Positions 422 through 36,472 of a stretch of DNA of 64,000 bases are shown here, piece by piece. The stretch lies in assembly GCF_030867095.1 (NCBI RefSeq), contig NC_081831.1, positions 39,381,319 through 39,445,318 on the forward strand. Reading direction: 5' to 3'. How positions within the stretch are numbered: position 1 is the first letter of the stretch; each line of letters opens with the position of its first letter. The notes beneath the pieces were generated by a model. The model worked only from the letters and a program-made list of their open reading frames with translations. It ran no database searches and was not told where the DNA came from. Made by a program: the position numbers and the translations under genes. This stretch comes from Alligator mississippiensis (lineage: Eukaryota; Chordata; Crocodylia; Alligatoridae).

Positions 422-427
422 CTGGTA
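422..427. repeat. Left target-site duplication of the Polinton
   Basis: CTGGTA directly precedes the left terminus at 428. The matching word after the right terminus is CTGGAA (36467-36472), five of six bases identical. Six-base duplications are characteristic of Polinton insertion. Confidence 0.75.
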
Positions 428-688
428 AGTAGTATTTAGGGTACACCTTTTATCAAACTGACAAGCCCTGCCCCCTAACAGGGGCCCTGCCTCCTTGCCC
501 CACCCTTTGTCCAACCCCTTGCCCCACGCCCTAGCCACCATATTGGCTGCCATCTTGGGACCAGAAATCCCACCCCTAACTCCTGAACTTTGCCACTAGA
601 AACCTTGCCCTTTCCCCCAGAAGTTCTCCATTTTGAGGTGTTTCTGGCCCTGGAACAGCAAGTCCTGCCCTATCACGTGCCCTTATGA

Positions 689-2446
689 AAGGGGTGGGCA
701 ATTATTGCAGGAGAATGGAGCTTACTGAGTTTTGGCAAACTGTCGAGGGCCACATGGGTAACCCCGCCCTTTAACAGGTGCCCCGCCCCCTGTTCACCAT
801 CTTGGGATCAGAAGTCCCGCCCCTAACCTCTGACCTTTGCCACCATAAGTCCCCTCCTTTGCCCCTGGAAGTACTCCTTTGGGGAAGAGGGTTTGCTATT
901 TTAGGGGGGAAAAAAACAAATTACATACTAAAACTCAAACACCTATAATAATATATTTTAATTTAATTTTAAAATATATTTTTGTCCTGATTTGTGTGCG
1001 TTTGTGTTGTACACGCAGAAGTAATTGCATAATAGCTCAAAATGCAGTCTTACTCTTGTATATTGTGCGAGGTGTATAGAGGTGTAGGGGGGCATGGGTG
1101 GGTGGGCGTAGGATTTATGGGGAGCTCTGGGTGAGTGGGTGAGTGGGTATCTGCCCAGCTACTGCTGTCACTCAACCCTGATGGGTGAGCCCAGAGCTGG
1201 TGTGGGGCCCAGGCTGAGCAGCAGCAGCAGAGAACAAACTGCTGCTCAGTGCAGGCAAAAAGCGGCTACTCCCTCTCCCCACCTTCCCCTCCTCTGCTGA
1301 GCATCAGTTTGTTCTCCACCCCTGCTGCTCAGCCTGGAAGGGCAACCCAGAGCTGGCACAGGGCCCAGGCTGAGCAACGGCAGCAGGGAACAAACTGGTG
1401 TTCAGCATGGGCAAAATGTGGCCACTCCCCCTCCCAGCACCCCATGCTGCAGCCACTCAGAGCCCGCATGGGGCCGCCTGTGCCTGCTCTCCATTGCCAC
1501 CACTGCCCCATAGGGGCACCACTTCACCGTGGTGACACAGCGGAGAGGCAGGACAGCCCCATGTGGGTTGCAAGCAGCTGCACCAGGAAACACCAACCAC
1601 GAGGAGGGGAGGATTGTTTCACCCAAGCTGAGCAGCAGTCTATTCCCCGTTGCCACTGCTCAGCCCAGATGGGCTAGCACAGGGCATGCAGGGTCGGGGC
1701 TGTGCACTCATCCCCGCCGATACTGCAGGGCTAGGGCGGGGGCACTGGGAGGGAGTGGGAGCACTGGGCCCACATCGGTGTCCTGGGGCCAGTGCCAGGG
1801 CCCAGAGCAGGGTAGCTGGAGCATGGGGTCACAGCCAGAAGGGGTTCTTTGGAGCTGAGCCAGCTCCATGCTGGCTCTCCTTGCTGGCACAGACAAGCCC
1901 AACTCCATAGAACCCTGCTAGCCTGTGCCTGGCACTCCTGCTGCCCCACTCTGGATCCCACTGGCACTGGCCCCGGGACATTGGTGCAGGCCCCATGCAC
2001 CCACTGACTTCCACTCCCCCGCCCAAAAGCCACTCTTCACCACGTGGCTGCTGGCTACACGGCCAGACCATGGGGCTCAGCAGGAGCCGACCAGGCCCCA
2101 AGGACTGGGGTGATCTCCACAGTCCTCCCCTGCCCCCCCCCACCCTTCTTGCCTGAAATTCCCACTCCAGTGCAGGGAGGCACAAACAGCCCCACGGTCC
2201 CAGTCCAGAAGCACCTGCTAGGCAGGGGGTTCCAGCTGGGTGGAGCAGGGCTGGGTGGGCCCTGCTGTTGCAAGGAGCCTGCCATGGATTCCCTTGGGTC
2301 CTGCTCCCCCTGGCTCCTGTCATCTTTGACAGGTAGCCAGGGGCTGATAAATATTAATTTTCTAAGTTTTTTAGAGGCCCTGTGGGCCAGATAGAATGGC
2401 CTGGTGGGTTAGATCTGGCCTGTGGGCCATATTTTGCCCATCCCTG
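689..2446 (+). mobile_element. Non-autonomous hAT-type element inside the left TIR
   Basis: Starts with a worn GGGGTGGGCAATTATT end and finishes with ATTTTGCCCATCCCTG, the inverted partner. The interior is GC-rich and non-coding. The same family occurs at 5290-6141 in the other orientation, where an exact 8-bp target duplication is visible. Here no duplication is visible; some flanking TIR sequence seems lost. Positions 740-880 resemble the Polinton TIR itself (see findings). Long open frames here are products of GC bias. Confidence 0.65.
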
Positions 2447-2764
2447 ACCATGTCGGTGGCCATCTTGACCACCATGCTACAGCCCAGAACACCCTGTTCG
2501 CATCAAATGGTCTGTGACCTCAGAAGGCCCAACCCCTGGCCACCATGTTGGTGGCCATCTTGGCTGCCATGTTACGTCCCAGAACATCCTGTTCCCATCA
2601 CATGCCCCTGTGACATCAGAAGATCCACTCTTTGACTGGGAAACGCCTCCCCCAAGAACGGCATCAGAACAATTGAGGCAAATATAAGGGGTGGGACCTA
2701 GGCTGGACGTCCATGGCCTGCCTCTTTTCTAAATCCTGTTGGGAAACCCTTCAAACCAGGCCGT

Positions 2765-3079
2765 GTGTTTTCTGAGACCACAGTTATGCAGGCGGAAGCA
2801 AATATGGATTCTTACACTTTGGAAGCCTCAGGCACTGTTCAGACCACTCTCAGCAGCACTGTGGATGAGATCTCAGTGATTAAGACGGATTCCCAGACTC
2901 CCAAAACAGATCCAGGGACCATGGCAGACCCCCAACGTACCGCATCAGAGCCACCGGCAGAGAGCTTGGAAGTGGCAGACAAGCTAAACCCCAAGGGCTG
3001 TGCAGAGGTAACTTATATAGATTTTTTTTTGGAGGGAGCAGCTTTCCACAATAATGGTGGTTCTGTCTTAACTATATAA
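2765..3079 (+). pseudogene. Open frame at the inner end of the left TIR, function unknown
   Basis: Encodes an acidic, Ser/Thr-rich peptide with the run TDPGTMADPQ near the middle. A homologous frame lies in the right TIR on the opposite strand (31894-32189). The two are readable over most of their length with about 12% base difference by eye. The TIR therefore carried coding sequence facing inward at both ends. No family is recognised. It could be the N-terminal part of a Polinton accessory protein; that is inference. It is part of the fossil and not expected to be a working gene. Confidence 0.5.
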
Positions 3080-3609
3080 TCTCTTTGCAGGCAGATGCTG
3101 CCTTTATAGAGAGCTTTCAAAACCTATGCTTCGGTGGACCTGCAAGAATAAAGGTCTAATGCATGAACAGGTTTTGTTCATGTCTAAAAGAGAGACGTTC
3201 AAGACAAGATTGAAGATGTATGTATCAGTTTTGTCTGAGTCCTCAGAGCCCATGGAGCAGGCATACAAACTTATGGAGATTACAGAGCAGGGGTATGAAT
3301 CTATGGAGGTCACACAGCACCCTCTGTTCAGAGAAGAATTGTCTGCATGTCTAAAAAAGAGGAGTTCAAGACATAATCTTGTATGTGCTGCTTTTCATTA
3401 CCTGATTAATAAACCTTGTTTTACCACTGTTTAAATTTGTTGGCTGGCATTTAAAATGCTTGTTGGCGAAGAGGGTACCACAGTTACCAGGCATGTCTAC
3501 ATGGGAGGCTTTGTTAAAGGAAATTTATTACACTCCTAGGGCAGTGGGAGTTTTGGTGCGGTGAACTCATCTTTTGAAGTGGCCAAAAGTCAGAATAAGA
3601 ATCTAAACA

Positions 3610-3845
3610 GAAGCCAACTGACTGCCTGGCTTTTAGATCACTATGCTTACACCCTACACAAGTCAGCAAGAAGACATTTTAAAAGAAACAAGACTGTTTG
3701 TTGTTTCAGTATATAGAGACTACTTTAAAACAAAAGCAGCAACACCCCTGTTCAGGACCACATGAGGGTGTCTAGAAACAAAGGGAGATTTGAAAAAGGT
3801 TATGAACAAACATTCACCAATGAAATTTTCATAGTAAGTGAAGTC
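3610..3845 (+). pseudogene. Polinton integrase remnant
   Basis: Translation shows a Tyr-Thr-Leu-His-Lys motif followed by a basic Arg/Lys stretch, as near the N-terminal zinc-binding part of Polinton integrases. A second piece reads GRFEKGYEQTFTNEIF, typical of the C-terminal region of these integrases. In the family the protein is a retrovirus-like DDE integrase that inserts the element and makes the 6-bp target duplication. Only short terminal parts remain and the gene is broken. It lies on the + strand just inside the left TIR. Confidence 0.65.
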
Positions 3846-3934
3846 ATTAAGCAAATGCAGACCCCCCCCCCCCCACCACCTAAAAGATTACAAAGATGAA
3901 TCTATCAAGTGTTCTTTTTTATTTTTAAAGTGTT

Positions 3935-4170
3935 CCTTTCACAGCGGGTCTGAAGAGTGTACCAAATCCAAGCTGGATTTGTTTCAAGTAGCCCCCACAC
4001 AGACCAGCATTGAGAAAAGTCTGTCCATTGAGGTCCCCTGCTATCGGCTGTTATGGAGTCTGCCCCCCTTGACTTTTTCATTGCTGGGAATGGCGAAGAT
4101 TATATGGATTCGAACAACACGCTGCTGTACCATTGTTGCAAAATTGTAAAAGGCGAGGGAACCGATCTTG
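3935..4170 (+). pseudogene. Polinton capsid-like protein remnant (N-terminal part)
   Basis: Translation gives a KLDLF..PTQTSIEKS stretch and then SAPLDFFIAGNGEDYMDSNN. Both resemble the N-terminal region of the Polinton virion protein known in invertebrate genomes as F54H12.2-like, which I take to be the double jelly-roll major capsid protein. The fragment ends where a CR1 LINE begins (about 4176); no later part of the protein was recognised in the window. Broken. The family match is from memory and needs a profile search. Confidence 0.6.
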
Positions 4171-4175
4171 ATAAT

Positions 4176-5158
4176 TTCATAGATTTCATAGATTTCGTAG
4201 ACATTAGGGGCTGGAAGGGAACTTGGGAGAGTATCTAGTCCAGGCCTGCCCCACCATAGGCAGGAATTCAGCTGGGATCAAGTAGTTCCAGCAAGAAAAA
4301 CATCCACATGTTTTTTGAAAGAGTCCAGAGTAGGTGTTTGCACCACCTCTGGGGGGAATCTGTTCCAGAACCTGGACACTCATTCCGTAAAGAACTTTTT
4401 TCTTATGTCTGGTCTAAATCGGCCTTCCTACAGTTTATGGCCATTAGACCTTGTTATACCTTGGGAAGCTCTGGTGAACAGCTGTTCTCCCAGGTCCTGA
4501 TGTACCCCTCTTATATAATTGTAGGCTGCTACCAAGTCCCCTCTGACCCTTCTCTTTCCAGACTGAAGAGTCCCAAGTCCCTTAGCCTCGCCTTGTACGG
4601 CCTGCCCTCCCGGCCTTGGATCACACGAGTGGCTGTCCTCTGGACCCTCTCAAACTTATCCACATCCCTCCTGAAGTGGGGGGCCCAATACTGAATGTGG
4701 TACTCCAGCTGTGGTTTCACCAGGGCTGAGTAAAGTGGTAGGATGACATCCCTGGTTTTGCTTGAGATGCATCAGTGGGTGCACACCAGAGCTTGGTTTG
4801 CTTTTCCAGCCACAGCACTGCCGAGCCTGTAAGTATGTTGAAGGTTCTTCCTACCAAGGAGCAGCACCTTACACTTCTCTACATTGAAGGCCATCAGGTT
4901 TTGGTCAGCCCACCTTGAGAGCGTGTCCAAATTGGCCTGTATCCCCAGCCTGTCCTGCAGTGTGAGTGCCCTCCCCCATAATTTGGTATCATCCATGAAC
5001 TTGGCCCAGTTCACATCTGACTCCCGGCTCCAGATTGTTTATGAATGTTAAAGAGTACTGGTCCAAGTATCAAGCCTTGAGGGACTCCACTTGTCACCCT
5101 GCACCACGTTGAATTGCTCCTGCCAAATAGTACTCTTTGGGTTCGACCATGTAGCCAA
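4176..5158 (-). mobile_element. CR1 LINE copy A, 3' portion
   Basis: Minus-strand CR1. The 3' end at the low coordinate has the repeated TCATAGATTT tail, followed by 3' untranslated sequence and ORF2 fragments. The fragments include reverse-transcriptase motif GVPQG..LGPVLFN near 5050, an FMDDTKLWG-like catalytic block near 4990, and the C-terminal block YWAPHFRRDVDKFERVQ near 4690. The copy is 5'-truncated at about 5158 and carries frameshifts and stops. It overlaps the coding range of copy B, so it is a separate insertion. Confidence 0.85.
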
Positions 5159-8455: not shown

Positions 8456-8490
<35 letters not shown>

Positions 8491-11540: not shown

Positions 11541-11544
11541 TATA

Positions 11545-11640
11545 GTGGGCCAGAGAACAAACCTCCCCAGCACTAGCATCATGACAAACCGCAAGGACCT
11601 CTCTGGCTCTCTCTTTTCTCCCCGCTATGACATTTCCTCC
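11545..11640 (+). repeat. Inverted duplicate of a DNA polymerase segment
   Basis: About 96 bases match the reverse complement of 12431-12522, a part of the Polinton polymerase remnant. Shared words include GTGGGCCAGAG, ACAAACCTCCCCA, GACCTCTCT and ATGACATTTCCTCC. The copy lies next to the ATPase remnant and faces the opposite way to the polymerase, so it records a local inversion or foldback duplication. Confidence 0.7.
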
Positions 11641-11840
11641 CCTCCATGACATTTCCTCCTTGTATAGTTCTTTATACAAAGGATGCCAACAGGTATAACA
11701 CACATGATATTCTCAGGCATAACAGACAACAAGCTATCATCATTATCCAGAAGGTTTTTTATAAAGTAACTTTTACCACAGTTGGTAGGCCCTGCAAGTA
11801 TCATAGAAAAGTGGTGCTTCCAGCACATATTCATATTCAA
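11641..11840 (-). pseudogene. Polinton packaging ATPase remnant (FtsK/HerA, A32-like)
   Basis: The minus strand encodes AGPTNCGKSYFIKNLL, a Walker A loop in the context typical of the Polinton/adenovirus-relative A32-type genome-packaging ATPase, followed by PENIMCVIP. In the family this protein drives DNA into the capsid. Only the N-terminal nucleotide-binding part is visible and it is broken. It lies downstream of the polymerase remnant on the same strand. Confidence 0.65.
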
Positions 11841-11889
11841 AAACCATGCTGGTGGGACTTAAAGTTTTCTGTAAGGACTCTTTTGTCAT

Positions 11890-12560
11890 AAACTACTTTC
11901 TCCATTTTCTTGGTAGACTTGGTTTTGATTGTCTACTGCCATTTGTTCCTGACAATAGACCTCTGCTGTACTGCAATGGTTTTAGGGTTGTCCCTGATGG
12001 GGTTGGTTCCGTAATCAAGAACAAGATCTCTCAAGCTCTCAAAATTGACTTTTATACAGTTGGCCACATTCAGGGTAATCCCTTTGACTTCTAAGTAGAT
12101 CTTTCCTCCCAACAGTTTGTACACATAGGTTTTCAGGCTTGTTGACACAAACTATATGATGTATTCATCTGGCGAGATCTCATTTGTGAGCTCGCCTAAA
12201 TAATCACCTAGCAGGGGATTTCAGTCTCCCCTGGAGCTCACAAATATCACTGAGTCTGTGTCATGGTATAGGCACTGATCTTGCAAGCTGTCTAACAGCT
12301 CATACAGGTCTAAGCATGCATACACTGTGGTAAAACAGACTATAAAGATATTAGTGTTGCCTGAGAGCATGTAATGCTCTTTGGTGTGCTTCCAAGACAT
12401 GCAGGCCATCTCATCATCGATAAAGTTACAGGAGGAAATGTCATAAGGGGGAGAAAAGAGATAGAGAGGTCCTCGGGGTCTCTCGTAATGATGGTGTTGG
12501 GGAGGTTTGTCCTCTGGCCCACAAAAATTTGCCCTTCTTTGTGGGTGCATTTTGGCTGGT
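11890..12560 (-). pseudogene. Polinton DNA polymerase B, palm and C-terminal remnants
   Basis: The right part (12560 to about 12221) encodes a palm region with YHDTDSVIF, the DTDS catalytic motif of family B polymerases. The left part (about 12148 to 11890) reads KTYVYKLLGGKIYLEVKGIT, like the C-terminal region of Polinton protein-primed polymerases. The enzyme replicates the element in the living family. More N-terminal parts lie at 14770-17043, separated by later insertions. Broken. Confidence 0.75.
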
Positions 12561-12568
12561 TTGTTTCA

Positions 12569-13286: not shown

Positions 13287-13319
<33 letters not shown>

Positions 13320-14746: not shown

Positions 14747-14769
14747 TGGCATAGCCATCTAAAAAATAT

Positions 14770-15471
14770 CCCCCACCTGAAGTTCCCTACCCTGTAATTG
14801 GATACTTTCTTTCTCAAATATGTACATCAGCCACTGGATAGATGGGGTTGAAAATCTCTTTGTCTGTCTCTGGTAGTTGTCTGTGGGAAGTAGTGTTATG
14901 GTCTGGTCTGTCAAAAACATAAATCTGTACATGGCCATACAGACAGAATCCAGCGTGATATATTGGAAAGGGTCTATGTAGAGACTTACCCATTTGAGCT
15001 TACCATCCTTCGTGGTTTTTTGTCCACATAAGATTTACACTTATAACACAAAGTTATAGACAGACAGTCAATCTTTTTTTCAGAAGCCAGAGCTGTGTGT
15101 CTCTCTAAGCACTCTATGGATCGACAGACCAGTTTACACTTAGGACACCTCTGTGCCTCTCCCACATTATCTGCACAGTCTGGGCTCAGACAGAGCTGGC
15201 ACCAGAACCTGCATGCGTGGCTATGGCTGTACAATGTCTGACAAAGATCACAATAATTTCTCAGGCCAAAAACCTTTTTCATGTCCAGAACACCATAATA
15301 ATGTTCATCATGCAACAGAAAGAAACAGGTATTTGGGTACTGGGGTATGTTGTGTATTTTAAAGAAATCCCACCCTATTTTCCTCTTATGCATTACTATA
15401 TGAATGTTAACCTTTACAAGGTCTTCAAACAATGCTACGTCCTTCAGCATAACCTGTTTTGAGCTGACCAC
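14770..15471 (-). pseudogene. Polinton DNA polymerase B, exonuclease-region remnant
   Basis: The minus strand encodes a Cys-rich stretch with paired CxxC motifs and a CxxxH-like partner (about 15300-15050). A stretch reading ITLDSVCMAMYR then TDNYQRQ and IQWLMYI follows (about 14960-14780). This order, zinc-binding N-terminal part and then the exonuclease-adjacent SxCxxxYR block, is typical of Polinton and other protein-primed family B polymerases. Broken; downstream parts are at 11890-12560. Confidence 0.7.
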
Positions 15472-16039
15472 CCCAACTTCTTGTGCAGCTGGTTTGCACC
15501 ATGTAGCAGTTCTGCATCTGTGGCTCCTCTAAGATTGGTCAGAGCAAGCAGACTACCGACAAGACAGAGCATATTATCAAAAGTGTTCAGATGGATTAAA
15601 TACTGCCTTTTTTTGGCAATGATTTAGGAATAGGGGATAGAACTTATCACTCTACAGGCACCACCAACCACATTGCTTACAACAACCACAATCAGCCAGA
15701 ATGTTGAATCAAACAGTATTTCTCTCTGACTTCGTAACAGCTTACTGATCCACTCTAAAAACAGGTCAGTTTAAATTAATACTTGGTGACTATAAGCAGT
15801 TGTTCATACCGTTTGCCTCAATATGGTCCTGGGCATAATCAGAAGGTGTGAATCTATTTGCTGCAATTTGTTCTACCCCCCCTCTTATGGCTTCAAAAGC
15901 CATGTGTACCAGCACAGGTTCCAGATTCCTAAAACAAAACTCCTGTATATACCACTGGGGTCCAAACCTAGCTATAGGCCACTCCCAGCATCTCACCCAT
16001 GCCATTTCTACATCAGACAAGACATCCTCCGCAGGCTCA

Positions 16040-16290
16040 GGAGGCACTACATTTGTGGGACCCTCTGAGAAGTCTTCTAAATCACTTTCGCCACCCCTAT
16101 TGTCTGATTCCACAGACCCAGGAGAAGAAGGAGACTTTGAGAAACCCTCTAGAGGGTCTGCTGATTCATTTTCACCAACACTGCTCTCTGACTCCACAGG
16201 CTCAGGAGACGACAGAGATTTCAAGGGACCCTCTAGAGGGTCTTCAAAATCACATTCGCCAGATCTGCTCTCTGGCTTCACAGGCTCAGG
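16040..16290 (-). repeat. Three 84-bp tandem repeats (28-residue acidic repeats)
   Basis: The word CCCTCTAGAGGGTCT recurs at 16145 and 16229, with a variant at 16061, giving an 84-bp period. On the minus strand each unit encodes roughly EPVESES..GE.. followed by DPLEG..KSPSSP. The period is a multiple of three and keeps the frame. Confidence 0.75.
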
Positions 16291-16469
16291 AAGGTTTGGG
16301 GTATTTGGGGCCCCCCTCACTAGGGGGTGTCTTATTCTTTCTCAATAGCCTTTTTCACTCTCATCTTTAAACAGGTCTTTACTTTTTGCCCCACAATCCA
16401 CTTGTTCCCAGGTTTATCAGCGCCTCCCCTCTTATGATGCATACAGACCTCCCCTCCCCATACATCTGT

Positions 16470-20950: not shown

Positions 20951-21947
20951 TGTCCCAGGGACACTGGGGCTAGAGGGAAACCCCGGCCCAAAACCAAAGG
21001 AAATGAAAACGTATACTTACCCTTTGCAGGAGTCAAGGGCAGCGGAGGTGCGCATGCCGGGAAACCACCCGCGTGGGTTATTAGCCGCGCTTACATTCAG
21101 CTGAGGCCAGGTGACGTCAGTGAGAGACGCCACCCGGCAGGAATAAAGTGCGGCCCCGGGGGCACAGGAGGCACGCTGCAGGAGAACACGAAGCCCAGAG
21201 GGAAGCCCGAGGACAGAAGCGGGCACCCGCGGGGTGTCTCTGCCTTGGGCAGGGTAAGCTGCAGCAGCGCGGGGAGCGGCGAGAGCGGCGAGAGCCACAG
21301 CCACGAGGACTCCAGCTGTGGAGCTGACGCAAGAGCCGGTAGGAGAGCGGGGACGGGAACCAGCGGTGAAGGAACCAGTGGAAGAGCCAGCAGGGACACC
21401 GGTGAGGGAGCTGGAGGGAGAGCCGGCAGGGATGCCGGTGAGGGAGCCAGAGGAAGAGCCGGCAGGGACACCAGTGAAGGAACCAGTGGAAGAACCGGCA
21501 GGGACACCAGTGAAGGAACCGGTGGGAGAGCCGGCAGGGACGCCGGGGAGGAAGCCCGCAGGGGCAACAGAATCTCGGGTCTTGTAGTCCTCAGACCGGA
21601 ACCCAGCTCAAGTCACCGAGTCGAGCGGGTCGGGGACAAGGGAAGAGCCGAGGCGGGGCCGGTGATTAGAAGCTGAAAGATCCACGACTGAAGGTGGAGT
21701 TGGCCGGGGTGTAGGGGAGGTTGGAGCCCTGTGAGTGCCCGCCAAAGGCATGTTGGCACTGGAGGCCGCGGAGAGGGGGACCCCACCACTGAGGGTCCAG
21801 TTAAGACCGCGGCTGGCGAGTTCCGGGGGTTCTGCCACCGTCACCTGGGGCACCCTCTGGGGACCCTCCCACGGGACCGGGGCAGACCCGGTCAGCTACC
21901 CGCGCAAAAGTAGCCCGGGAACGCCTTTTGGAGCAGAGGCGGGCACA
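20951..21947 (+). repeat. 5' LTR of the inner Gmr1-like element
   Basis: Starts TGTCCCAGGGACAC and ends GCGGGCACA. It contains an AATAAAGTGC polyadenylation-type signal near 21142. The downstream part (21330-21550) is a minisatellite of 36-bp units. Confidence 0.9.
21330..21550 (+). repeat. 36-bp minisatellite inside the LTR
   Basis: About five imperfect 36-base units centred on GAGCCGGCAGGGACACC. In one frame each unit encodes EEPAGTPV.EPV-type 12-residue repeats. A shorter set is at about 26570-26730 in the 3' LTR, with different unit number, showing slippage or conversion since insertion. Confidence 0.8.
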
Positions 21948-21950
21948 ACG

Positions 21951-21966
21951 TGGTGGCAGCAGTGGG
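21951..21966 (+). other. Primer-binding-type site, inner element
   Basis: TGGTGGCAGCAGTGGG follows the 5' LTR by three bases, in the position of the tRNA primer site of LTR elements. The matching tRNA was not identified. Confidence 0.5.
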
Positions 21967-21969
21967 ATC

Positions 21970-23064
21970 ATGAAGGAACCCGACCTTGCAACCTATGCCA
22001 GCATGCAAGCCACGGCTATCAGTCCCGCTGATGTCCTCGGACAGAACTTACAGGCTTTGACCCAGATCCTGAACTCTCAGCAACAAATGCTAGACCGGCA
22101 ACAGGATTGGCTCCAACACAGTTTGGTGTCCTTCAAAATGCCTAAAATGACTAAGGACAACGACCCGGAGGTGTATATCGAGGCATTCGAGCGGCACGCC
22201 CTCATGACCAGGCTCGACAAGAGATATTGGGCCAGCCAGTTAGGAGCCTTAGTAGTTGGCAAGGCCCAAGCCACCTATCGGGCCTTCTCGAGGGATGACG
22301 CCCAAGACTACAAGCACGTGAAGGAAGCCATCCTATACAGATTGGAGATTAACTCTGAGCACTACTGTCGCCAGTTCCGGGCCAAGAAGGGACCTGAGGC
22401 GAAACAACCGAGAGTGTTGCAGCTTCTGTGGGATCTGCTGGATAAGTGGGTGAACCCAGCGGGGCAGGACAGAGAGGCATTGGCTGACCAGATCGTCCTT
22501 GAACAGTTTCAGAACGATTTAGAAGAGCGGACGCAATGCTGGGTCCGACAACATACCCCACGGACCTGTGAACAAGCTCTAAAATTGGCCGAGGCTTTTA
22601 CTGCCTCGGAGGCCCACTACCCCAGGGAAAGGAGGAACCTGGGACCCTCGATGGCAGCCCCAAGAGAGCCGGAGCGCCGGCGTCCGCCTGGCCGGGGGGC
22701 TACCAGAGATACCGTGTGTTTCCGGTGCGGGCAGAAGGGCCATTTTTCTAGGGAATGCCCGAGCCAAGCCGCAGAACACTGGATCCCGGACGACAGAGCA
22801 AGGGCCCCAACAGAGTGGTGGAGAGGCCCAGAGCCCGCCGAGCCAATGGACTGCAGCTATGTGGTCGGTGGGGAGAACGTGGCTTGGAGACGTCCCGTTG
22901 TCAAGGCTTGGGTGGAAGGTCGCCCCATGCGAGCTACCCTGGATTCGGGGTGTGCTCAATCTCTTGTCAGAGGAGATTTGGTACAATCGCATGGCCGGTG
23001 GACGGCTCACCCCGTGAGAGTAGCCTGCCTCCATGGGGACGCCAAGCAGATCGAGCGCCAATGA
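21970..23064 (+). CDS. gag (SCAN-like capsid, zinc knuckle) of the inner element
   Basis: Start chosen at the ATG 23 bases after the 5' LTR. Gln-rich N-terminal helix, then capsid sequence. From about 22366 to 22605 it reads CRQFRAKKG... DQIVLEQFQNDLEERTQCWVR... EQALKLAEAF, which follows the order of landmarks in the vertebrate SCAN domain (FRQF, LEQFL, WVR, EA). A CCHC zinc knuckle CFRCGQKGHFSREC is at about 22722-22763. The protease start (RATLDSGCAQS) lies near the end of the frame. In the family gag assembles the intracellular particle. It is part of a fossil retroelement, not a host gene. Confidence 0.8.
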   Translation: MKEPDLATYASMQATAISPADVLGQNLQALTQILNSQQQMLDRQQDWLQHSLVSFKMPKMTKDNDPEVYIEAFERHALMTRLDKRYWASQLGALVVGKAQATYRAFSRDDAQDYKHVKEAILYRLEINSEHYCRQFRAKKGPEAKQPRVLQLLWDLLDKWVNPAGQDREALADQIVLEQFQNDLEERTQCWVRQHTPRTCEQALKLAEAFTASEAHYPRERRNLGPSMAAPREPERRRPPGRGATRDTVCFRCGQKGHFSRECPSQAAEHWIPDDRARAPTEWWRGPEPAEPMDCSYVVGGENVAWRRPVVKAWVEGRPMRATLDSGCAQSLVRGDLVQSHGRWTAHPVRVACLHGDAKQIERQ

Positions 23065-23181
23065 GTCCGCCTACGGGTAATGGAGCACGAGGGAGAACTC
23101 CTGGTGGGGGTCGTGTCCCAGTTAGCGTGTGAGATGCTTCTAGGATGAGACTGGACGCCAGTATACGACGTCCTGGATAGG

Positions 23182-26139
23182 GTGAGGGACACGGAAGTAG
23201 CCCGTAAGAAGATTCAGAACCGGGAGGGCTGGTTGGGCGAGATCAAAGAAAACGAAGGTTCGGCTGACGAGACGGATGAATTGGACCTTAGCGACTTTAC
23301 CAGTAGCCTCCTGTTCGGAGAAGCACAAGAGGAGGATCAGGAGATCGGGGTGCTCCGAGAGCAGGCCCAAAGTACCAGAGGGGCCTCAACGTTATCGCCT
23401 GAAGGGCATCCCCGCTTCAAGGTAAGGAACCGCCTTAAAGGGGACAGGGGGGAGGAGACCGAGGGCTTGCAGCTAGTAGTGCCCGCCCGATTCCGCCAGG
23501 CCATTTGGCAGTTGGCGCATGCAAGTCCCACAGGGGGACATCTGGGCTGGGACAAGACCCTCGCGAGAATGAGCAGGTGGTTTTTTTGGCCCGGGATGGG
23601 GGAGGAAGTGGCCCGCCAATGTGCAGCCTGCCCCAACTGCCAAAAGATGAGAACCGAGCATCCTCCATGGGCACCCCTCCAACCCATGCCCGTTATCGAC
23701 GCCCCGTTTTCAAGGATAGCCTTAGATGTCATGGGCCCCTTTCCCCGCAGCAGCTCAGGCCACCAATACATCTTGGTCATTGTGAATTATGCCACCCGGT
23801 ACCTTGCAATCCCCCTGCGAGCCGTAACCGCCCCATGTATTGCAGAAGAGCTAATAAGATGGATAGCCCGGATGGGGATCCCGCAAGAGATACTAACGGA
23901 CCAAGGAAAGAATTTCATGTCTGGGGTTTTGAGGGTGGTATGCCGAACCCTCCAAATAAAACAGCTCCGCACCTCGGTTTACCATCCCCAAACCAATGGG
24001 TTGGTAGAACGCCTCAATGGGACGATAAAACGGGTATTGCGCCGGTGCATACAAGGGGACCCCTGGAAATGGGATCTCCTCCTTCCTCTAGTATTGTTCA
24101 CTCTCAGGGACACCCCCCAAGATTCCACGAAGTTCTCTCCATTCGAGCGAGTGTTGGGACATCGCCCGCGGGGTCTCTTGCAGGTCTTGAGAGAAGAATG
24201 GGAGCAGGGAGAAGGGCCCTCCCAGGAGCCAAAGACATACCAACAGGCGTTCCAGCACAGGATCAGATTGGCCCGGGACCTAGCTCAGGAAAACCTAAGA
24301 GAAGCCCAAACCCGTCAAAAAGGCCAGTATTACCGCTGGGCCAAAGAGCGAGAATTCGAGCCGGGGCAAAGAGTCCTGGTGCTGCTCCCCACGTCCACGA
24401 GCAAGCTCCTAAAGCAGTGGCAGGGGCCATTTGAAATTCTCCGATGGGTGGGACCAGTGGATTACGAGGTTCACAGGCCCAGACACCTTCGAGAAAAGCA
24501 AATTTACCATGTGAACCTCCTACGGGAATGGCGGGAGCCCGAAGGATGGGTGGCCTTTTCCAAGGCCGATAACGAGGACCTAGGACCCCAGGGGTTAGAA
24601 AGAGGGACTGAGCCCTCTCCAGAGGGAACCCCGGTTAGGATAGGAGAGGAATTGTCCTCTGTTCAGCAGCGAGAGGCCCGAAGCTTGATAAACGAGTTCC
24701 GAGAAGTATTCCGCAAGGAACCCGGCTGGGTTCGGGGCTTGTGCCACGCTATAAAAATGCCCCCTGGGGCAATAGTGAGGGAGAGGTGGCGACCCATTCC
24801 CCACCACCTCCTGGAAACCGTCCGCAGAGAGATAGATTCAATGTTGAGGCTAGGAGTCATTCGGCCTTCAAGAAGTCCCTGGAGGAGCCCACTGGTGCCG
24901 GTGCATAAGCCTGACGGGTCTTTAAGGCTTTGTGTGGATTACAGAAGATTGAATGCCATGGAAGTTTTCGACGCATTCCCCATGCCCCACGTGGCAGAGC
25001 TGGTAGAAAGGATAGGGGATGCCCGGTATATATCGACCCTTGACCTGGCAAAGGGATATTGGCAGATTCCAGTGGCCAAGGAAGACCGGCTGAAGACAGC
25101 GTTCGGCACCCTGTGGGGACTGTACGAGTTCATTAGAATGCCCTTTGGATTACATGGTGCCGCCGCAACGTTCCAACGTCTAATGGACCAGATCCTGGCA
25201 CCCCACGCCAAATACGCGGCGGCGTACATAGACAATATAGTCATATACTCCCGGACCTGGGAGCAGCACAAGAGCGCCCTTCGAGCCATCCTCACAGAAC
25301 TGAGGCACGCCGGCCTAACTGCAAACCCCCGAAAATGTGTCCTGGCCCAGAAAGAAACAAAATATTTAGGGTTCTTGGTCAGCAGAGGCACGATTAAACC
25401 CTTGGCCGACAAGGTAGAAACCATCTGCAACTTCACAGCCCCTCAAAACTGCCACCAGCTACGGTCATTTTTAGGGCTAACCAATTATTACAGGCGATTT
25501 GTACCGCACTTCGCAGAGCTGGCAACACCCTTATCGGAGGCCCTCAAAGGGCGGAAAACGGGGGCAGTAAAATGGACGAAAGAGATGGTGCAAAGTTTTG
25601 AAAGATTGAAAAGGGCGTTGTGCGAAGATGTTATAATTCACACCCCTGACTTCCGAAAACCCTTTATTTTACAGATGGACGCCTCAGAGACAGCGGTGGG
25701 TGCCGTCCTCACCCAGGAAGAGGGGGAGAATGAAAGACCCGTGGCATACGCAAGCCGCAAACTGCTACCAGCGGAGAAAAGGTACGCAACTATCGAACAC
25801 GAGTGCCTGGCAATTCAGTGGGCAGTAGACCACTTTAGATACTACCTGATGGGTAGAGAGTTTAAACTGGTAACTGACCATGCCCCGCTGAGGTGGCTGA
25901 GTACAGCCAAGACCGATAATGCCCGGATTACCCGGTGGTCCTTGGCACTCCAACCATATAAGTTCCACATAATACAACGACCCGGAAAAACCAATACAGT
26001 GGCAGACTTCTTGTCCAGGTGTAGAGGCAAAGACCAGACTGGGAACCAAGGAGGTCAAGTAAAGGGACGGACTGACACCACAGATACGACCCGGATGGGG
26101 AACGAAGAAGCGCCCCAAGGCATCTTAAGGGGGGGGTTA
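23182..26139 (+). CDS. pol (integrase, RT, RNase H) of the inner element
   Basis: A long open frame. A zinc-binding HHCC region (HASPTGGHLGW..., CPNCQK; about 23515-23645) precedes the DDE integrase core (LDVMGPFPRSS, EILTDQGKNF, VERLNG; about 23720-24030) and a C-terminal YHVNLLREW block. Reverse transcriptase (SPWRSPLVPVHKPDG, LCVDYRRLN, FGLHGAAATFQRLMD; about 24870-25440) and RNase H (MDASETAVGAVL, YATIEHECLA, DHAPLRWLS; about 25670-26020) follow. Integrase before RT is the Gmr1-like order, opposite to most Ty3/gypsy elements. The frame runs on into the 3' LTR. Confidence 0.88.
26127..26136 (+). other. Polypurine tract, inner element
   Basis: A run of purines (AAGGGGGGGG type) lies just before the 3' LTR start at 26140, the usual position of the plus-strand primer. 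Confidence 0.7.
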
Positions 26140-27139
26140 TGTCCCAGGGACACCAGGGCTAGAGGGAAACCCCGGCCCAAAACCAAAGGAAATGAAAACG
26201 TATACTTACCCTTTGCAGGAGTCAAGGGCAGTGGAGGCGCGCACGCTGGGAAACCACCCGCGCAGGTTATTAGCCGCGCTTACATTCAGCTGAGGTCAGG
26301 TGATGTCAGTGAGAGACGCCACCCGGCGGGAATAAAGTGCAGCCCCGGGGGCACAGGAGGCACGCTGCAGGAGAATGCGAAGCCTGGAGGGAAGCCCGAG
26401 GGCGGAAGCGGGCACCCGCGGGGTGTCTCTGCCTTGGGCAGGGTAAGCTGCAGCAGCGCAGGGAGCGGCGAGAGCAGCGAGAGCGGCGAGAGCAGCAAGA
26501 GCCGCAGCCATGAGGACTCCAGCTGTGGAGCTGACGCAAGAGCCGGTAGGAGAGCGGGGACGGGAACCAGCGGTGAAGGAACCAGTGGAAAAGCCAGCAG
26601 GGACCGCCGGTGAGGGAGCTGGAGGGAGAGCCAGCAGGGACGCCAGTGAGGGAGCCAGAGGAAGAGCCGACAGGGACACCGGTGAAGGAACTGGTGGAAG
26701 AGCCGGCAGGAACCAGGGAGAGAGCCAGCAGGGACGCCGGGGAGGAAGCCCACAGGGGCAACAGAATCTCGGGTCTCGTGGTCCTCAGACCGGAACCCAG
26801 CTCAAGTCACCGAGTCGAGCGGGTCGGGGACGAGGGAAGAGCCGAGGCGGGGCCGGTGATAAGAAGCTGAAAGATCCACGACTGAAGGTGGAGTTGGCCG
26901 GGGTGTAGGGGAGGTTGGAGCCCCGTGAGTGCCCGCCAAAGGCGTGTTGGCACTGGAGGCCGCGGAGAGGGGGACCCACCATTGAGGGTCCAGTTAAGAC
27001 CGCGGCTGGCGAGTTCCGGGGGTCTGCCACTGTCACCCGAGGCACCCTCTGGGGACCCTCCCGCAGGACCAGGGCAGACCCGGTCAGCTACCCGCGCAAA
27101 AGTAGCCTGGGAACGCCTTTTGGAGCAGAGGCAGACACA
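26140..27139 (+). repeat. 3' LTR of the inner Gmr1-like element
   Basis: Starts TGTCCCAGGGACACC and ends GCAGACACA, then the TACAC duplication. Near-identical in layout to the 5' LTR, including the AATAAAGTGC signal and a shorter minisatellite. Confidence 0.9.
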
Positions 27140-29803: not shown

Positions 29804-29808
29804 CCCAG

Positions 29809-31029: not shown

Positions 31030-31240
31030 TAATTGCCACACTCTCAGCTAAATGTTTCTCAGTGAGGCATAGACAATCCATAAAGTACCCTAACTTTAAT
31101 AATAGCTTTTGAATACTTTCCATACACAGCTGAGTACAAAGTTCCTGAATTGTCTGATTTATATCCTCATCTGTCCAATCCACACAATTGTGGCTTCCAT
31201 GGTGCAGCTCGGAGACAGCCCATGCAGTCTTCAAAAAGTC
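31030..31240 (-). pseudogene. Unrecognised helical coding remnant next to the right TIR
   Basis: The minus strand encodes CVDWTDEDINQTIQELCTQL and a further amphipathic stretch with KLGYFMDCLCLTEKHLAES. Leu/Ile spacing suggests helices. It is preceded on the same strand by the TIR frame at 31894-32189. Function unknown; probably a Polinton accessory gene. Broken. Confidence 0.35.
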
Positions 31241-31893
31241 TCTTTCTCGAGCAATATTTCAGTATATCATAACAACAAACATGTACAAGAGATTTCATGA
31301 GGCTTTTACATCCCTGCTGTGAGACAGGGCCTGCTCATTCAATTCCTAGTTGTCTTCTAAAAGCCACAGCACCTTCTTCTTTTGAAGCATCAGGCCTCTG
31401 ATTGTCACAAAAACAGCTTCTCTTTTCCAATACAGGGGTTACAGGGATGCTGCTGTGTTGTCTTTCTGGTGTCATTAGAAAGGCTTCATCAAGCTGCAGA
31501 GGAATTTTAAAGAAGAAACGCTAGTTAGCTACTGTTTAAGGAGTTTGTAGTTAATTTCTGCCCCACCATCAACACCCCTAAGGACCCTCACACCTCCCAG
31601 TTCAAGAAACTCACCAGTGCCTCTGCCCCCTTGGAGACATCTTCTCCCTCAGCATCCAACACGAGATATCCCTCTTCTCCAGAATCCTCAGCGTCTGCTC
31701 TGGCAACTGGCCATTAAACATCTCAGGCAAGTCTTGGGTTAGGGGGCTACTCTCCTTAATCTCCATCTCTTCAGAACTATTGCTACGGTAGTGCTTTCTT
31801 GGCAGACATCTGTCAGGCCTTGGTGGTAAGGCAGGAAAAAAGGGCCTTACTGGTATAGTGTAATTATATAGGGATTATATAGTAAACACAGAA

Positions 31894-32189
31894 TCATCCT
31901 GTTACTGTAGAAAACTGCTCCCTCCAAAAAAAATCTAAATTAGTTACTTCATCAGAGCCGTTGGGGTTTAGCTTGTCTGCCACTTCCATGCTCTTTGCTG
32001 GTGGCTCTGATGCAGTCTGTTGGGGGTCTGCCATGGTCCCTGGATCTGTTTTGGGAGTCCAGAAATCTGTCTCAACCACCAAGATCTCATCCATACTGCT
32101 GCCGACAGAGGTCTGAACAGTGTCTGAGGCTTCCAAAGCGTAAGAATCCAATTTGCTTCTGTCTGCATTGGCATGGTCTCAGAAAACAT
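31894..32189 (-). pseudogene. Open frame at the inner end of the right TIR, function unknown
   Basis: Second copy of the frame at 2765-3079, on the opposite strand. It shares TDPGTMADPQ and the ADKLNP stretch. Readable, acidic, no recognised domain. Confidence 0.5.
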
Positions 32190-32236
32190 GTGACTTGGTT
32201 TGGAGGGTTTCCCAAGAGGATTTAGAAAAGAGGCAG

Positions 32237-33188
32237 TGTGACGTCTGTAGGTATTGTAGGGCTTGCTAGTACTGCCCTGTGCTCATCGGCCTACAGGTGG
32301 TGACAGGGTAGACCTTGGCTCTGGATCACCAGGTCTGCCAGGAAGTAGATCTTACGTTTTTCTCTCCTGCCATGACTTTGGTGACATTTATATTCCCGGG
32401 AGGCAACGCCCACGGTGATCCTGCCTGGTCTTGATCCCTGTGTCTTCGGTGGGGCTCCAAATCTCCCCTTTACACCAGCCTAACCTCTCCAGATGGTGTT
32501 TTACAATGTTCTTTCACAGCCAGGTTGCAGTGCTGCCAGTTGTAACCTTCTCTGCACCCCAGGGTGTCCTAGTGCCTCTTTTGGGTACACCCTTCCAGGG
32601 GCCGGTCTTGGCCGGCGCTCAAACAAAACCAAAAAAAATAGACAGCAAAAGAAATCACAGAAAAAAAACCTCGGCTGCTTCTCAGCCTTCTTGTCAGGCT
32701 CTGGCAATGTCCCCAGAACAAATCCCTTAGTCCATTCTCTGCTGTGCAAGCCTACCCTGCACCCCTATGAACGCTCACAGTTTTTCGGGGTCTCCCCCAC
32801 CATGCAGGAAGGCTCTACCTGTGACTGTAGATTTTTTCCCTTCAGACCCTTCTCCGGATCCTTAGCTGTGGCTCCACTCCGGAGATCCCACTAGCCGCTT
32901 GTTCACAGGCCTCCGCCTGCCTCAGGGTCACTCCCACAGTGTTCTTCAGGCATGCTCTGCAGTTTCTGCCTGCCAAGACACTCAACCGCTCCTCTCTCCC
33001 TGCAGCCTGCAGGGAACTGACCCCCCTCTGCCCCTCTCAGGGCCGGAAATACCTTTGAGCGGCCTCTCTCTGCCAATCCTGAGCGAGATGCTGCTCTGGA
33101 AATTGGATGGGTATTTTCCTTCCTTTCCGGGCTACAGCTGCAGCGCTGCTGGCCCTCCATGCTGTACGTTCGGTCTCACTCTTTCACA
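32237..33188. mobile_element. Solo LTR in the right TIR (first)
   Basis: Starts TGTGACGTCTG and ends CTTTCACA. Flanking words GGCAG (32232-32236) and GACAG (33189-33193) are a likely 5-bp duplication with one mismatch. The left TIR shows the uninterrupted site GGCCTGCCTCTTT near 2717. No coding parts. Confidence 0.7.
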
Positions 33189-33374
33189 GACAGGCCAGGG
33201 ACTTCCAGCCTAGGTCCCACCCTCTATACTTGCCCTGAACGGTTCAGCACTGTTCTCAGGGGAGGCGTTTCCCAGTCAAGGAGCAGAACTTCTGATGTCA
33301 CAGGGGCATGTGATGGAAACAGGGTGTCCTGGGATGTAACATGATGGTCAAGATGGCCACAACATGGTGGTTAG

Positions 33375-34980
33375 TAGGGAAGTGTGAAGCAGGCCTGTGA
33401 TGGGGCACCAAGTCTGCCCTGTCCCAGAACTCCGGGGGAGTGAAGGAAAACAGAAAACTGACCTTAGCAATGAGTCTGAGGAGAGAAAGGAGTGGGGATA
33501 CCTGGATGGAGGAGAGAGGGACCCAGATGAAAACATAAACAAAGGCATCATGTGCTGAGGGAGCAGAGGGGAGGGTGCCAGCTGTGAGACAGGCAGCAGA
33601 CAGCCAGAAGGATTTAAACGGCAACAGAACCCAGAGTTAGTTCTTGAAAAGAGAAGAAAGAAACCCAGAAGAAATAGGGAAAGACTACAAGAGACAGACA
33701 ACAGATGACAGACAGAAGGGAACGGAAGAAGGGTCCTGGAGAGGGACTTACCTGGGAAGCTGAAATGAGGTAATGAAGGAGACCTGTGAGTTGGTGAGTC
33801 TGATACCTGAGGACATTGGGTAATGTCCCATAGACTTAAAAAAGAGAGAGGAATGAGAGTGTATGAAGATTAACAAAGAGAAGAGAACCCCACATTTTGA
33901 TATCCATAGAAAATACAAGGTGACATAGAATTGCCATTTGCTGGGGACCCGTGCAGAGGAGAATGGGGCAAACAACCAAGAAATGGAGAGCTCTCAAAGA
34001 GAGAGGGAACTAAATATATCTAAGATGTTAGTTATCTAAGAGAGACATAGTAACTGTGCAGAAGAGTTATTTTTGCTAAACCGCAGACATGATATCTTCT
34101 TCATCTCTCAGGACTGTGTTTATTTCCTTACCTTATTACATCAAAGTCACGGTGGGTGAGAAATAAAGGAAATTAACCAGTTCATATTAAAACAAGAGAT
34201 TGTGATTCATTTTGCGGGCATAGCTTAACTCTCACAGGGCCCTATTCAATTTGGATTTGGATTCAGCCCGAATCGGGGACAGTGATCTGATTTGTTGATC
34301 CAGATCACTGTCCCTAATTCAATTCGGCCAAACCCGAATCTGAAGATTCGATGCTGATTCAGAGTATCATTGATTCGGTCTTAGACACAGCTTTAAATTT
34401 TTTTTCTACATACCTCGAGGTCCTAGCACAGCTTGTGAAAGCTACGATGCTGGGGTGCATGGAGCATCCCACAGGAGCATTGGGGGGGGGGGGGCCCTCC
34501 ATGTGCTTGGCAAGTAATTCGGGTCCACTTCCGGGTCCACCAGGGAGCATGTGGGGATCCTGCACACTCCCCAACTAGGTGATCGGCCATGGGGAGACCC
34601 CGGGTGCTCCCCAGACCCAGAAGGCACCAGTCGCCGAGCCAGGAAGGCATAGGGAGACCCCCCAGTGAGCTCCCCGGTAGACCCAAAAGTGCTTCTGGTC
34701 CACCTCAGGGTCTGCTGCCGAGTGCACTGAGGAGCCCCCTGTGCTCCTGTGGGACGCTCCATGCGCCCCAGCATTGCAGCGTTCATGAGCCACCTGCTAC
34801 CTAGGGGTATGTAGGAAAAACATTTAAAGCTGTGTCTATGTCTGAATCGCCGAATCTTTCTGAATCGATTCGGAGAGATTAAAAGCGTTTCTGATTCGAT
34901 TCAGATTCAGAGATTCAGCCACCAAATTGAGCCGAATCTCCGCCGAATCGAATTAGGAACCGAAGCTTCGCACAGCCCTA
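33375..34980. mobile_element. hAT element (TAGGGCTGTGCGAA family), split by an LTR
   Basis: Starts TAGGGAAGTGTGAAGC and ends GAAGCTTCGCACAGCCCTA. Flanks GTGGTTAG (33367-33374) and CTGGCCAT (34981-34988) both derive from the TIR word GTGGCCAG. It carries a hairpin GGGACAGTGATCTG / CAGATCACTGTCCC at 34276-34314, and shares ATTCAGATTC-rich arms with the copies at 42778 and 61619. A solo LTR sits near its left end. No transposase. Confidence 0.75.
33396..34236 (+). mobile_element. Solo LTR inside the hAT element
   Basis: Starts TGTGATGGGGCACC and ends TTAACTCTCACA. Flanks are AGGCC (33391-33395) and GGGCC (34237-34241), a 5-bp duplication with one mismatch. A GAAATAAAGGAA signal near 34163, about 70 bases from the end, gives a + orientation. 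Confidence 0.7.
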
Positions 34981-35123
34981 CTGGCCATAGGTTTGGGCCT
35001 TATGAGGTCACAGACTATGTGATGGGAACAGGGCGTTCTGGGATGTAACATGGAGGTCCAAATGGCTGCCAACATGGTGACCAGGGGTTGGGCTTTCTGA
35101 GGTCACAGACCATGTGATGGGCA

Positions 35124-36131
35124 TGTGGCAGGCCAGTAGAGGGTGCTCCTGCATTGAGCCACCCACCTCACTGTGCCCGACCACCTTCCAGGTTCCGAGT
35201 GCCTCCCTGGGGGTGCCTCATATCTGGCTGACCCCCTTCCTGGAGCACAGCCACTAGCCTGGGGGTAGAGCTGCCATCACCCAGGGATGAGCTTGATTCT
35301 GGCTCTGTATCCCCTGGGAAACACAAGCCTAGTAGCCCTCGAGGGTACTTGACTCACTTCAAGAACTTGGGATACTTCCCTAAGTCGGAAGCACAAGTAG
35401 TGGTCTCCCTTAGCTGAACCAAGGGGACCGCAAGGCATAATCTAGACCCACTCTAAATAAGTTTCCCACGCTAGGTACAAAGGAGAACTTTATTGGTTAC
35501 AAGGAGTAGGGTTGGAATAGGGTACAGAGTTGAGTAGTATCAGAGAAATCCCATAAAGCAAATAGGGTGGCTGGAGTAGCCTTTGACCACACATCTGAGT
35601 TACTGCAAGCTATATATCTAGTTAGGTCTCAGGTAGCTTACTCACTCACATTTGCCTCATCCAGAGGCAGGTGGAGATTTCCTCTGGAGGCAGGCAGTTT
35701 CTTGATCATGAGTTTTGAGAGAGAGAGCAAGTTTCAGATGGTCCACCTCCTCTTTCTCTCTGAGTTTTCCTTATGGCTGCTTCTCCCTCCTCCTGGACAG
35801 TCCTGAACTTATACAGCCCTTATGACCTCATTTACCTGGTCCAATGGAGGCTAGCACCTGTTGGCTGTCAGCCAACCAATTTGAAATGCATTACTAGTTG
35901 CTGGGCAGACTGGCAGTCTCTAGCTCACCAGGGTGCCTAAGCCCCTCACCCAGGTATGTGATGCCAGTCACATAGGTAGAAGAAGCAGGTTTCCCCCCTC
36001 CCTCAGGAATGTATCCAGCTCAGGTTACCTAAAGAGATAGGGTAAGGTATGTATCCTCTGTTTGGCCCATCCTAACCAAATTGTCACAGAGCAGAGTTTG
36101 TGGGGAGAAACAGAGGTGGCCTTCTGCCACA
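35124..36131 (-). mobile_element. Solo LTR in the right TIR (third)
   Basis: Ends are TGTGGCAGG and CTGCCACA; flanks GGGCA (35119-35123) and GGGAA (36132-36136) are a 5-bp duplication with one mismatch. On the minus strand a TGTATAAGTT TATA-like box lies near 35812 and an AATAAAGTTCTCC signal near 35492. This gives a minus orientation with about 300 bases between promoter and polyadenylation signals. Confidence 0.75.
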
Positions 36132-36466
36132 GGGAACAGGTTGCTCTGGGAAGTATCATGGCAGTCAAGATGGTCACCAACATGGTGGCCGGGGCGGGCC
36201 TTCTGGTGTCATAAGGGCATGTGATGGGTCAGGGCTTCCTGTTCCAGGGCCAGAAACACCCCAAAATGGAGAACTTCTGGGGAAAGGACGGGGTTTCTGG
36301 TGGCAAAGGTCAGGGGTTAGGACCGGGAGTTCCAGTCCCAAGATTACAGCCAGTCCCAATATGGCATCCAGGGCAGGATGGCAGCCAGGAGGTGGGGCTA
36401 GGGGCAGGGCACCTGTCAAGGGGCAGGGCTTGTCAGTTTGACAAGAGGTGTGCCCTATATACTACT

Positions 36467-36472
36467 CTGGAA
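36467..36472. repeat. Right target-site duplication of the Polinton
   Basis: CTGGAA immediately after the right terminus; partner of CTGGTA at 422-427. Confidence 0.75.

What the first reader, a model, noticed from the sequence alone, without database searches (positions are those of the whole stretch)
422..36472. A vertebrate Polinton with both termini and its target duplication still readable
The ends are inverted copies starting AGTAGTAT, flanked by CTGGTA / CTGGAA. Integrase, capsid-like, ATPase and polymerase B remnants lie between. Recognising it requires pairing sequence 36 kb apart through many later insertions, so automated annotation could report only scattered pieces. It is a dated record of adintovirus-like DNA in a reptile germ line.
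Basis: partly seen in the sequence, partly recalled or inferred. Interest (0 to 1): 0.85.

Follow-up and report, generated by a model that had tools for sequence, protein, structure and literature searches.

The report
Fossil Polinton split by later insertions
An ancient virus-like DNA element of the Polinton/Maverick kind, with both ends and the small duplication left by its insertion still readable, has been broken up by younger jumping genes; elements of this kind are already known in vertebrates.

Summary
The core observation holds. Positions 428 and 36466 are the outer ends of one inverted pair (57 of 64 terminal bases identical; blocks at E 4e-61 and 1.7e-116), broken by later insertions. 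The ends read AGTAGT...ACTACT, the commonest published vertebrate Maverick end motif, flanked by CTGGTA/CTGGAA (5 of 6). Among 119 frames from four interior stretches, the best Pfam hit is adenovirus IVa2 packaging ATPase (1.1e-4) and the best PHROG hit is DNA polymerase (5.3e-4). Both are on the minus strand, in the published order. Integrase- and minor-capsid-like pieces at 3.4-4.2 kb fit the published plan but rest on my memory; no search supports them. The only strongly supported integrase belongs to a nested Gmr1-like retrotransposon. Outside CpG, TIR arms differ by K 0.177 and that element's LTRs by K 0.028, so the Polinton looks about six times older; one older LTR-like pair contradicts the simple order. 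Host, absolute age and empty site were not tested, because the genome search did not complete. It is a well preserved but dead member of a known kind.

The parts
422..427 (.). left copy of target-site duplication, CTGGTA
36467..36472 (.). right copy of target-site duplication, CTGGAA (5 of 6 identical)
428..688 (+). left TIR, outer block, begins AGTAGT
   Evidence: pairs with 36466-36209, 79%, E 4e-61
689..2446 (+). later insertion splitting the left TIR; hAT-like ends (AGGGGTGGGCAA...TTGCCCATCCCT), no 8-bp duplication seen by eye; carries a stretch (797-884) resembling TIR 550-632
   Evidence: hAT label recalled
2447..3084 (+). left TIR, inner blocks (95-bp tandem unit 2447-2622, then 2623-3084)
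31870..32236 (-). right TIR, innermost block
   Evidence: pairs with 3084-2718, 85%, E 1.7e-116
33188..33370 (-). right TIR block
   Evidence: pairs with 2723-2540
34982..35119 (-). right TIR block (95-bp unit)
   Evidence: pairs with 2622-2447
36132..36466 (-). right TIR, outer block, ends ACTACT
   Evidence: pairs with 688-428 and 2596-2501
3406..3713 (+). possible Polinton integrase N-terminal pieces (frames 3406-3561 and 3540-3713)
   Evidence: recognised from memory; only uninformative weak hits for 3540-3713 (Pfam OFeT_1 E 0.22; two PHROGs of unknown function E 0.012 and 0.015), none for 3406-3561; no confirmed relative
4032..4235 (+). possible minor capsid (penton) piece
   Evidence: recognised from memory; no Pfam or PHROG hit, PDB only unrelated hits at E 1.5 and 2.4, no confirmed relative
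11628..11858 (-). packaging ATPase piece with P-loop GPTNCGKS
   Evidence: Pfam Adeno_IVa2 E 1e-4, 21.7 bits, cut-off 21
11936..12151 (-). possible PolB C-terminal piece
   Evidence: recalled; no Pfam hit, one PHROG of unknown function at E 0.2
12224..12421 (-). PolB motif C piece (YHDTDSVIF)
   Evidence: PHROG 1907 DNA polymerase E 1.5e-4 for this piece trimmed by eye, 5.3e-4 as best hit of the untrimmed survey
14762..15034 (-). possible PolB middle piece
   Evidence: recalled; collinear; only an unrelated Pfam hit at E 0.11, no PHROG hit
14989..15528 (-). possible PolB N-terminal, Cys-rich piece (180 codons open)
   Evidence: recalled; only a zinc-finger Pfam hit at E 0.014, no PHROG hit
15793..16341 (-). 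possible PolB extreme N-terminal piece
   Evidence: recalled; no Pfam or PHROG hit
20951..27139 (+). nested younger Gmr1-like LTR retrotransposon (LTRs 20951-21947 and 26140-27139; duplication TACAC); not part of the Polinton

Best explanation
It is a dead vertebrate Maverick/Polinton (adintovirus-like element). A linear double-stranded DNA element with terminal inverted repeats of about 0.9-1.0 kb was joined to the chromosome by its integrase, duplicating 6 bp (CTGGWA). It carried two convergent gene blocks. The right block ran leftward on the minus strand: protein-primed polymerase B, then packaging ATPase. The left block ran rightward on the plus strand: integrase, then minor capsid. After insertion it decayed: both arms diverged, the genes I can recognise survive only as fragments, and later insertions (CR1-like LINE pieces, a hAT-like element, an older gypsy, and inside that a young Gmr1-like retroelement) stretched it to 36 kb. 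Shown here: the ends, end motif, duplication, ATPase and polymerase pieces, and the nested younger element. Inferred: the mode of integration and protein-primed replication (from what is known of the family), and the integrase and capsid pieces.
For: Inverted arms with controls. Ends AGTAGT/ACTACT equal the commonest vertebrate Maverick motif, 5'-(AGT)2//(ACT)2-3', reported with 6-bp duplications and TIRs of 46-1447 bp (PMC8097293, Results part 1 of 2 read). 5-of-6 duplication. ATPase piece and polymerase piece, each the best hit of its library among 119 frames. Order PolB then ATPase on one strand pointing to the centre, as in that paper. LTRs of the nested element (22 of 815 non-CpG differences, K 0.028) are much younger than the TIR arms (119 of 770, K 0.177), Fisher p 3e-20.
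Against: No Pfam polymerase hit for any polymerase piece. Integrase, major capsid, minor capsid and protease have no tool support. The polymerase and ATPase hits are modest (times 119 frames: about 0.06 untrimmed and 0.013). No confirmed relative in viral contigs or genome contigs. An LTR-like pair of the older inner gypsy is more diverged (42 of 167) than the TIR arms (137 of 806), p 0.016, the wrong way round for an insertion into the Polinton.
Confidence: 0.93

Rival explanations
1. Two separate copies or fragments of one Polinton family that happen to face each other, not one insertion.
For: The arms are 36 kb apart and each is split; a TIR-like stretch also lies inside the 689-2446 insertion.
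Against: The outermost bases of both arms are exactly the element ends; the flanking hexamers match 5 of 6 (0.58% by chance); the six TIR blocks searched gave no match at E 1e-3 between 36473 and 64000; the interior gene pieces fit the order and strands of a single Maverick.
Confidence: 0.03
2. A non-Polinton DNA transposon with long TIRs, the polymerase- and ATPase-like pieces being chance or from other insertions.
For: Profile hits are modest; integrase and capsid have no tool support.
Against: The end motif and duplication length match the published Maverick type; the top hit of each library among 119 frames is an expected Maverick gene, the two lying near each other on one strand.
Confidence: 0.02
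3. The coding remnants read as Polinton are retroelement debris (the integrase in particular).
For: The only Pfam integrase domains lie in the Gmr1-like frame 23149-26613 and, weakly (E 0.068), at 20037-20549.
Against: A packaging ATPase and a DNA polymerase are not retroelement genes, and these pieces lie outside those elements.
Confidence: 0.02

Closest known systems
Vertebrate Mavericks/Polintons (Barreat and Katzourakis 2021, PMC8097293; abstract and Results part 1 read)
   Same: End motif (AGT)2//(ACT)2, 6-bp target duplication, TIR length, PolB-ATPase module pointing to the centre, degraded state (96% of the 3,511 loci there are degraded)
   Different: 36 kb long, of which roughly 24 kb is later insertion by my own tally of the blocks; several core genes not found
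Terrapene box turtle adintovirus / Adintoviridae (PMC10812802, passages seen)
   Same: Same kind: Polinton with retrovirus-like integrase and adenovirus-like polymerase, in a chelonian
   Different: Sequence not available here, so no direct comparison was made
Polinton relics separated by later insertions in amniote genomes (Frith 2022, PMC9004415, passages seen)
   Same: Old Polinton pieces pushed apart by younger elements (44 kb in the human ZBTB20 intron)
   Different: Here both ends and the duplication are still readable
Gmr1-like Ty3/gypsy elements with SCAN gag (PMC3424704, passage seen)
   Same: The nested element has a SCAN domain in gag; integrase before RT is a Gmr1 feature that I recall
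   Different: It is an insertion in the Polinton, not part of it

Membership tests
Vertebrate Maverick/Polinton | Terminal inverted repeats (46-1447 bp in print) | tested here: met
   899 bp (left) and 1023 bp (right) after setting insertions aside, summed from the blocks
Vertebrate Maverick/Polinton | End motif (AGT)2//(ACT)2 or another listed type | tested here: met
   AGTAGT at 428, ACTACT ending at 36466
Vertebrate Maverick/Polinton | 6-bp target-site duplication | tested here: met
   CTGGTA/CTGGAA, 5 of 6, 0.58% by chance
Vertebrate Maverick/Polinton | Protein-primed DNA polymerase B | tested here: met
   PHROG 1907 DNA polymerase at 1.5e-4 for one trimmed piece and 5.3e-4 in the survey; modest; protein priming not testable; Pfam gave no polymerase hit
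Vertebrate Maverick/Polinton | Packaging ATPase | tested here: met
   Pfam Adeno_IVa2 1e-4, just above cut-off
Vertebrate Maverick/Polinton | Retrovirus-like integrase | tested here: inconclusive
   3406-3713 read from memory only; no informative hit
Vertebrate Maverick/Polinton | Major and minor capsid proteins and protease | tested here: inconclusive
   Minor-capsid-like piece 4032-4235 from memory; no informative hit; major capsid and protease not seen
Vertebrate Maverick/Polinton | Two gene modules on opposite strands pointing to the centre, PolB then ATPase | tested here: inconclusive
   PolB-ATPase module fits (minus strand, 16.3 to 11.6 kb); the opposite module rests on recalled identities
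Gmr1-like gypsy (nested element) | Integrase upstream of RT, SCAN gag, TG..CA LTRs | tested here: met

The most novel reading that the evidence does not exclude
The inner part of this Maverick's TIR was coding, so the element carried the start of one accessory gene twice, once at each end. The left-arm frame is open from 2786 to 3076 (97 codons). The right-arm frame 32178-31897 is open for 94 codons, of which about 75 match the left in the same frame before and after one-base shifts. The other five frames of the left-arm block 2718-3084 hold 3 to 6 stops each. Substitutions show no codon-position bias (13, 8, 9), so they neither support nor exclude it.
Probability: 0.25. Interest if true: 0.35.

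Novelty: new member of a known kind. Interest (0 to 1): 0.25.

Why it matters
It is a well delimited fossil: both ends, the duplication and a nested younger element with its own duplication let much of the insertion order be read. With orthologous loci it could give a minimum insertion date, as was done for vertebrate Maverick ortholog groups (54 groups, 3-95 million years, PMC8097293). It does not change what is known about the family.

Tried and rejected
Looked for relatives of single pieces in viral contigs: six protein queries and two degenerate DNA patterns gave no confirmed relative; genome contigs with one query gave none. tblastn of two pieces against phages gave only hits at E 0.5 or worse. 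PDB sequence searches of three pieces gave nothing below E 0.5. AlphaFold2 models of two pieces were of no use (mean pLDDT 38 and 46), so no fold search was made. Rfam gave 0 matches at gathering threshold in the window; ARAGORN found no tRNA. The surveys of 119 frames also gave weak hits that I take as chance: Pfam AAA_7 0.0067 (also seen for the ATPase piece), and PMR5N, ZNF512_C2HC, CNOT1_1st, Prok-JAB, ATPTG10 and EXS at 0.014 to 0.045; PHROG 22801 of unknown function at 0.0074.

Rejected: reading the integrase at 23-24 kb as the Polinton's. It sits in one open frame with RT and RNase H, between two LTRs with TG/CA ends and a perfect TACAC duplication. A codon-position test for coding in the inner TIR: differences fall 13, 8 and 9 on positions 1, 2 and 3 (p 0.50), no sign of selection. 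Inner and outer TIR blocks differ in divergence (51 of 365 against 53 of 258, p 0.04); parts of the outer block align poorly, so I put no weight on this. The genome search was asked the same question ten times and never answered, so copies in the host genome and the empty site were not tested.

Full report
What was checked. blastn (both strands) of 401-4000 against 31001-36600 gives minus-strand matches only: 428-688 with 36466-36209 (79%, E 4e-61), 2540-2723 with 33370-33188 (84%), 2718-3084 with 32236-31870 (85%, E 1.7e-116), and further matches of a 95-bp tandem unit (2447-2622) with copies at 34982-35119, 33289-33370 and 36132-36226. The first match starts at the very first base of AGTAGTAT and pairs it with the last base of ACTACT. 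As a control, 0 of 200 block-shuffled right arms gave a minus-strand hit, and 20000 random inverted 64-mer pairs reached at most 43 identities against 57 here.

Target duplication. CTGGTA precedes 428 and CTGGAA follows 36466: 5 of 6. Of 200000 random hexamer pairs from the window, 1163 (0.58%) do as well. One mismatch is not surprising when the arms themselves differ at 17% of positions (137 of 806 compared).

End motif and architecture from the literature. PMC8097293 (outline with abstract, and Results part 1 of 2, read) reports that the most common end motif of vertebrate Mavericks is 5'-(AGT)2//(ACT)2-3', that intact ones have 6-bp duplications, TIRs of 46-1447 bp and lengths of 12.7-24.6 kb, and that genes lie in two modules, generally on opposite strands pointing to the centre: polymerase, ATPase, PM, PZ; and integrase, minor capsid, PW, major capsid, protease. 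It found Mavericks in turtles, crocodiles, lepidosaurs and birds, 96% of 3,511 loci degraded and 2,166 without discernible TIRs. The window agrees on ends, duplication and TIR length (899 bp on the left, 1023 bp on the right, when the insertions are set aside).

Gene remnants. I took the 119 stop-to-stop frames of at least 45 codons that touch four interior stretches (3050-4270, 7650-9320, 11330-17450, 30150-31900) and scanned each alone. Best Pfam hit: Adeno_IVa2, E 1.1e-4, one member; it is the frame 11628-11858 on the minus strand with the P-loop GPTNCGKS (21.7 bits, cut-off 21). Best PHROG hit: DNA polymerase, E 5.3e-4, one member; trimmed by eye to 12224-12421 it is 1.5e-4, and that piece holds YHDTDSVIF. 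The survey values times 119 are 0.013 and 0.06, so neither is overwhelming alone. That the top hit of each library is an expected Maverick gene, the two lying near each other on one strand in the expected order, makes them convincing together. Further minus-strand frames at 11936-12151, 14762-15034, 14989-15528 and 15793-16341 look to me like other parts of a Maverick polymerase in N-to-C order; that is recall, with no polymerase profile hit.

Weak points. The integrase-like frames 3406-3561 and 3540-3713 and the minor-capsid-like frame 4032-4235 (plus strand, left, in the published order) are recognised from memory only. The searches gave only uninformative weak hits or none: Pfam OFeT_1 at 0.22 and two PHROGs of unknown function at 0.012 and 0.015 for 3540-3713; unrelated PDB chains at 1.5 and 2.4 for 4032-4235; no confirmed relative in viral contigs. 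Major capsid, protease, PM, PZ and PW were not seen. The integrase domain that Pfam does report clearly, in 23149-26613, is followed in the same frame by RT and RNase H and belongs to a retrotransposon.

Nested insertions and relative age. A Gmr1-like LTR element occupies 20951-27139. Its LTRs are 91% identical by blastn, with TG/CA ends and a perfect TACAC duplication; its gag carries a SCAN domain (PF02023, 2.1e-17), and integrase lies before RT. The SCAN domain of vertebrate proteins is stated to derive from a Gmr1-like gag (PMC3424704, passage). Outside CpG sites the LTRs differ at 22 of 815 positions (K 0.028) and the TIR arms at 119 of 770 (K 0.177), p 3e-20, so the Polinton is about six times older on this clock. 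At assumed neutral rates of 0.5 to 2 per billion years (recalled, host unknown), 0.177 would mean roughly 45 to 180 million years; this is an illustration, not a date. Against the simple order, an LTR-like pair of the older gypsy around it (17487-17653 and 30014-30180) differs at 42 of 167 positions, more than the TIR arms (137 of 806; p 0.016). The pair may not be a true LTR pair, or the arms may have been partly converted; I could not settle this.

Left-arm insertion. 689-2446 has ends that read as inverted hAT-like termini (the hAT label is recalled), and a related piece lies at 6012-6140. It contains 797-884, which resembles TIR 550-632 (77%).

Mechanism. By the knowledge of the family, integrase joined the element ends to the chromosome and produced the 6-bp duplication, and the element replicated with a protein-primed polymerase and may have been packaged. 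None of this can be shown from a fossil; what is shown is the footprint (ends, duplication, gene pieces). No function is claimed today: the gene pieces identified are fragments.

Literature on novelty. Searches of the held library and the papers opened show that vertebrate, including reptile, Mavericks and adintoviruses are described (PMC8097293; PMC10812802, passages), as are Polinton relics pushed 44 kb apart by later insertions (PMC9004415, passages) and degraded mammalian Mavericks that lack TIRs (PMC9683012, passages). Whether this particular locus is already annotated was not testable. I rate it a new member of a known kind at most, with modest interest.

Noticed in passing
20951-27139: Young Gmr1-like retrotransposon with long open frames: gag frame of 419 codons with SCAN domain and zinc knuckle, one pol frame of 1154 codons with integrase before RT/RNase H, LTRs differing at 22 of 815 non-CpG positions, TACAC duplication.
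   Followed up: partly
17487-17653 and 30014-30180: LTR-like direct repeat of an older gypsy element around the young one; more diverged (75% identity) than the Polinton arms that should predate it.
   Followed up: partly
689-2446 and 6012-6140: hAT-like insertion in the left TIR with a relative at 6012-6140; it carries an 88-base segment (797-884) resembling the Polinton TIR.
   Followed up: partly
2786-3076 and 31897-32178: Inner TIR block keeps an open frame in both arms (97 and 94 codons, about 75 of them matching in the same frame).
   Followed up: partly
47622-48083: GC-rich stretch (68% GC at 46-48 kb) with a frame containing MPFYKRTVLPRRL that resembles a first exon of an NHS-family gene; recalled only, Pfam gave no hit.
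   Followed up: partly
16103-16291 and 16472-16638: 84-bp and 68-bp tandem repeats near the N-terminal end of the polymerase remnants.
   Followed up: no
6872-7672, 10799-11314 and, weakly, 4775-5038: Minus-strand LINE reverse-transcriptase pieces in the left half (Pfam RVT_1 at 1.1e-6, 7.2e-11 and 0.015); CR1-like by recall.
   Followed up: no
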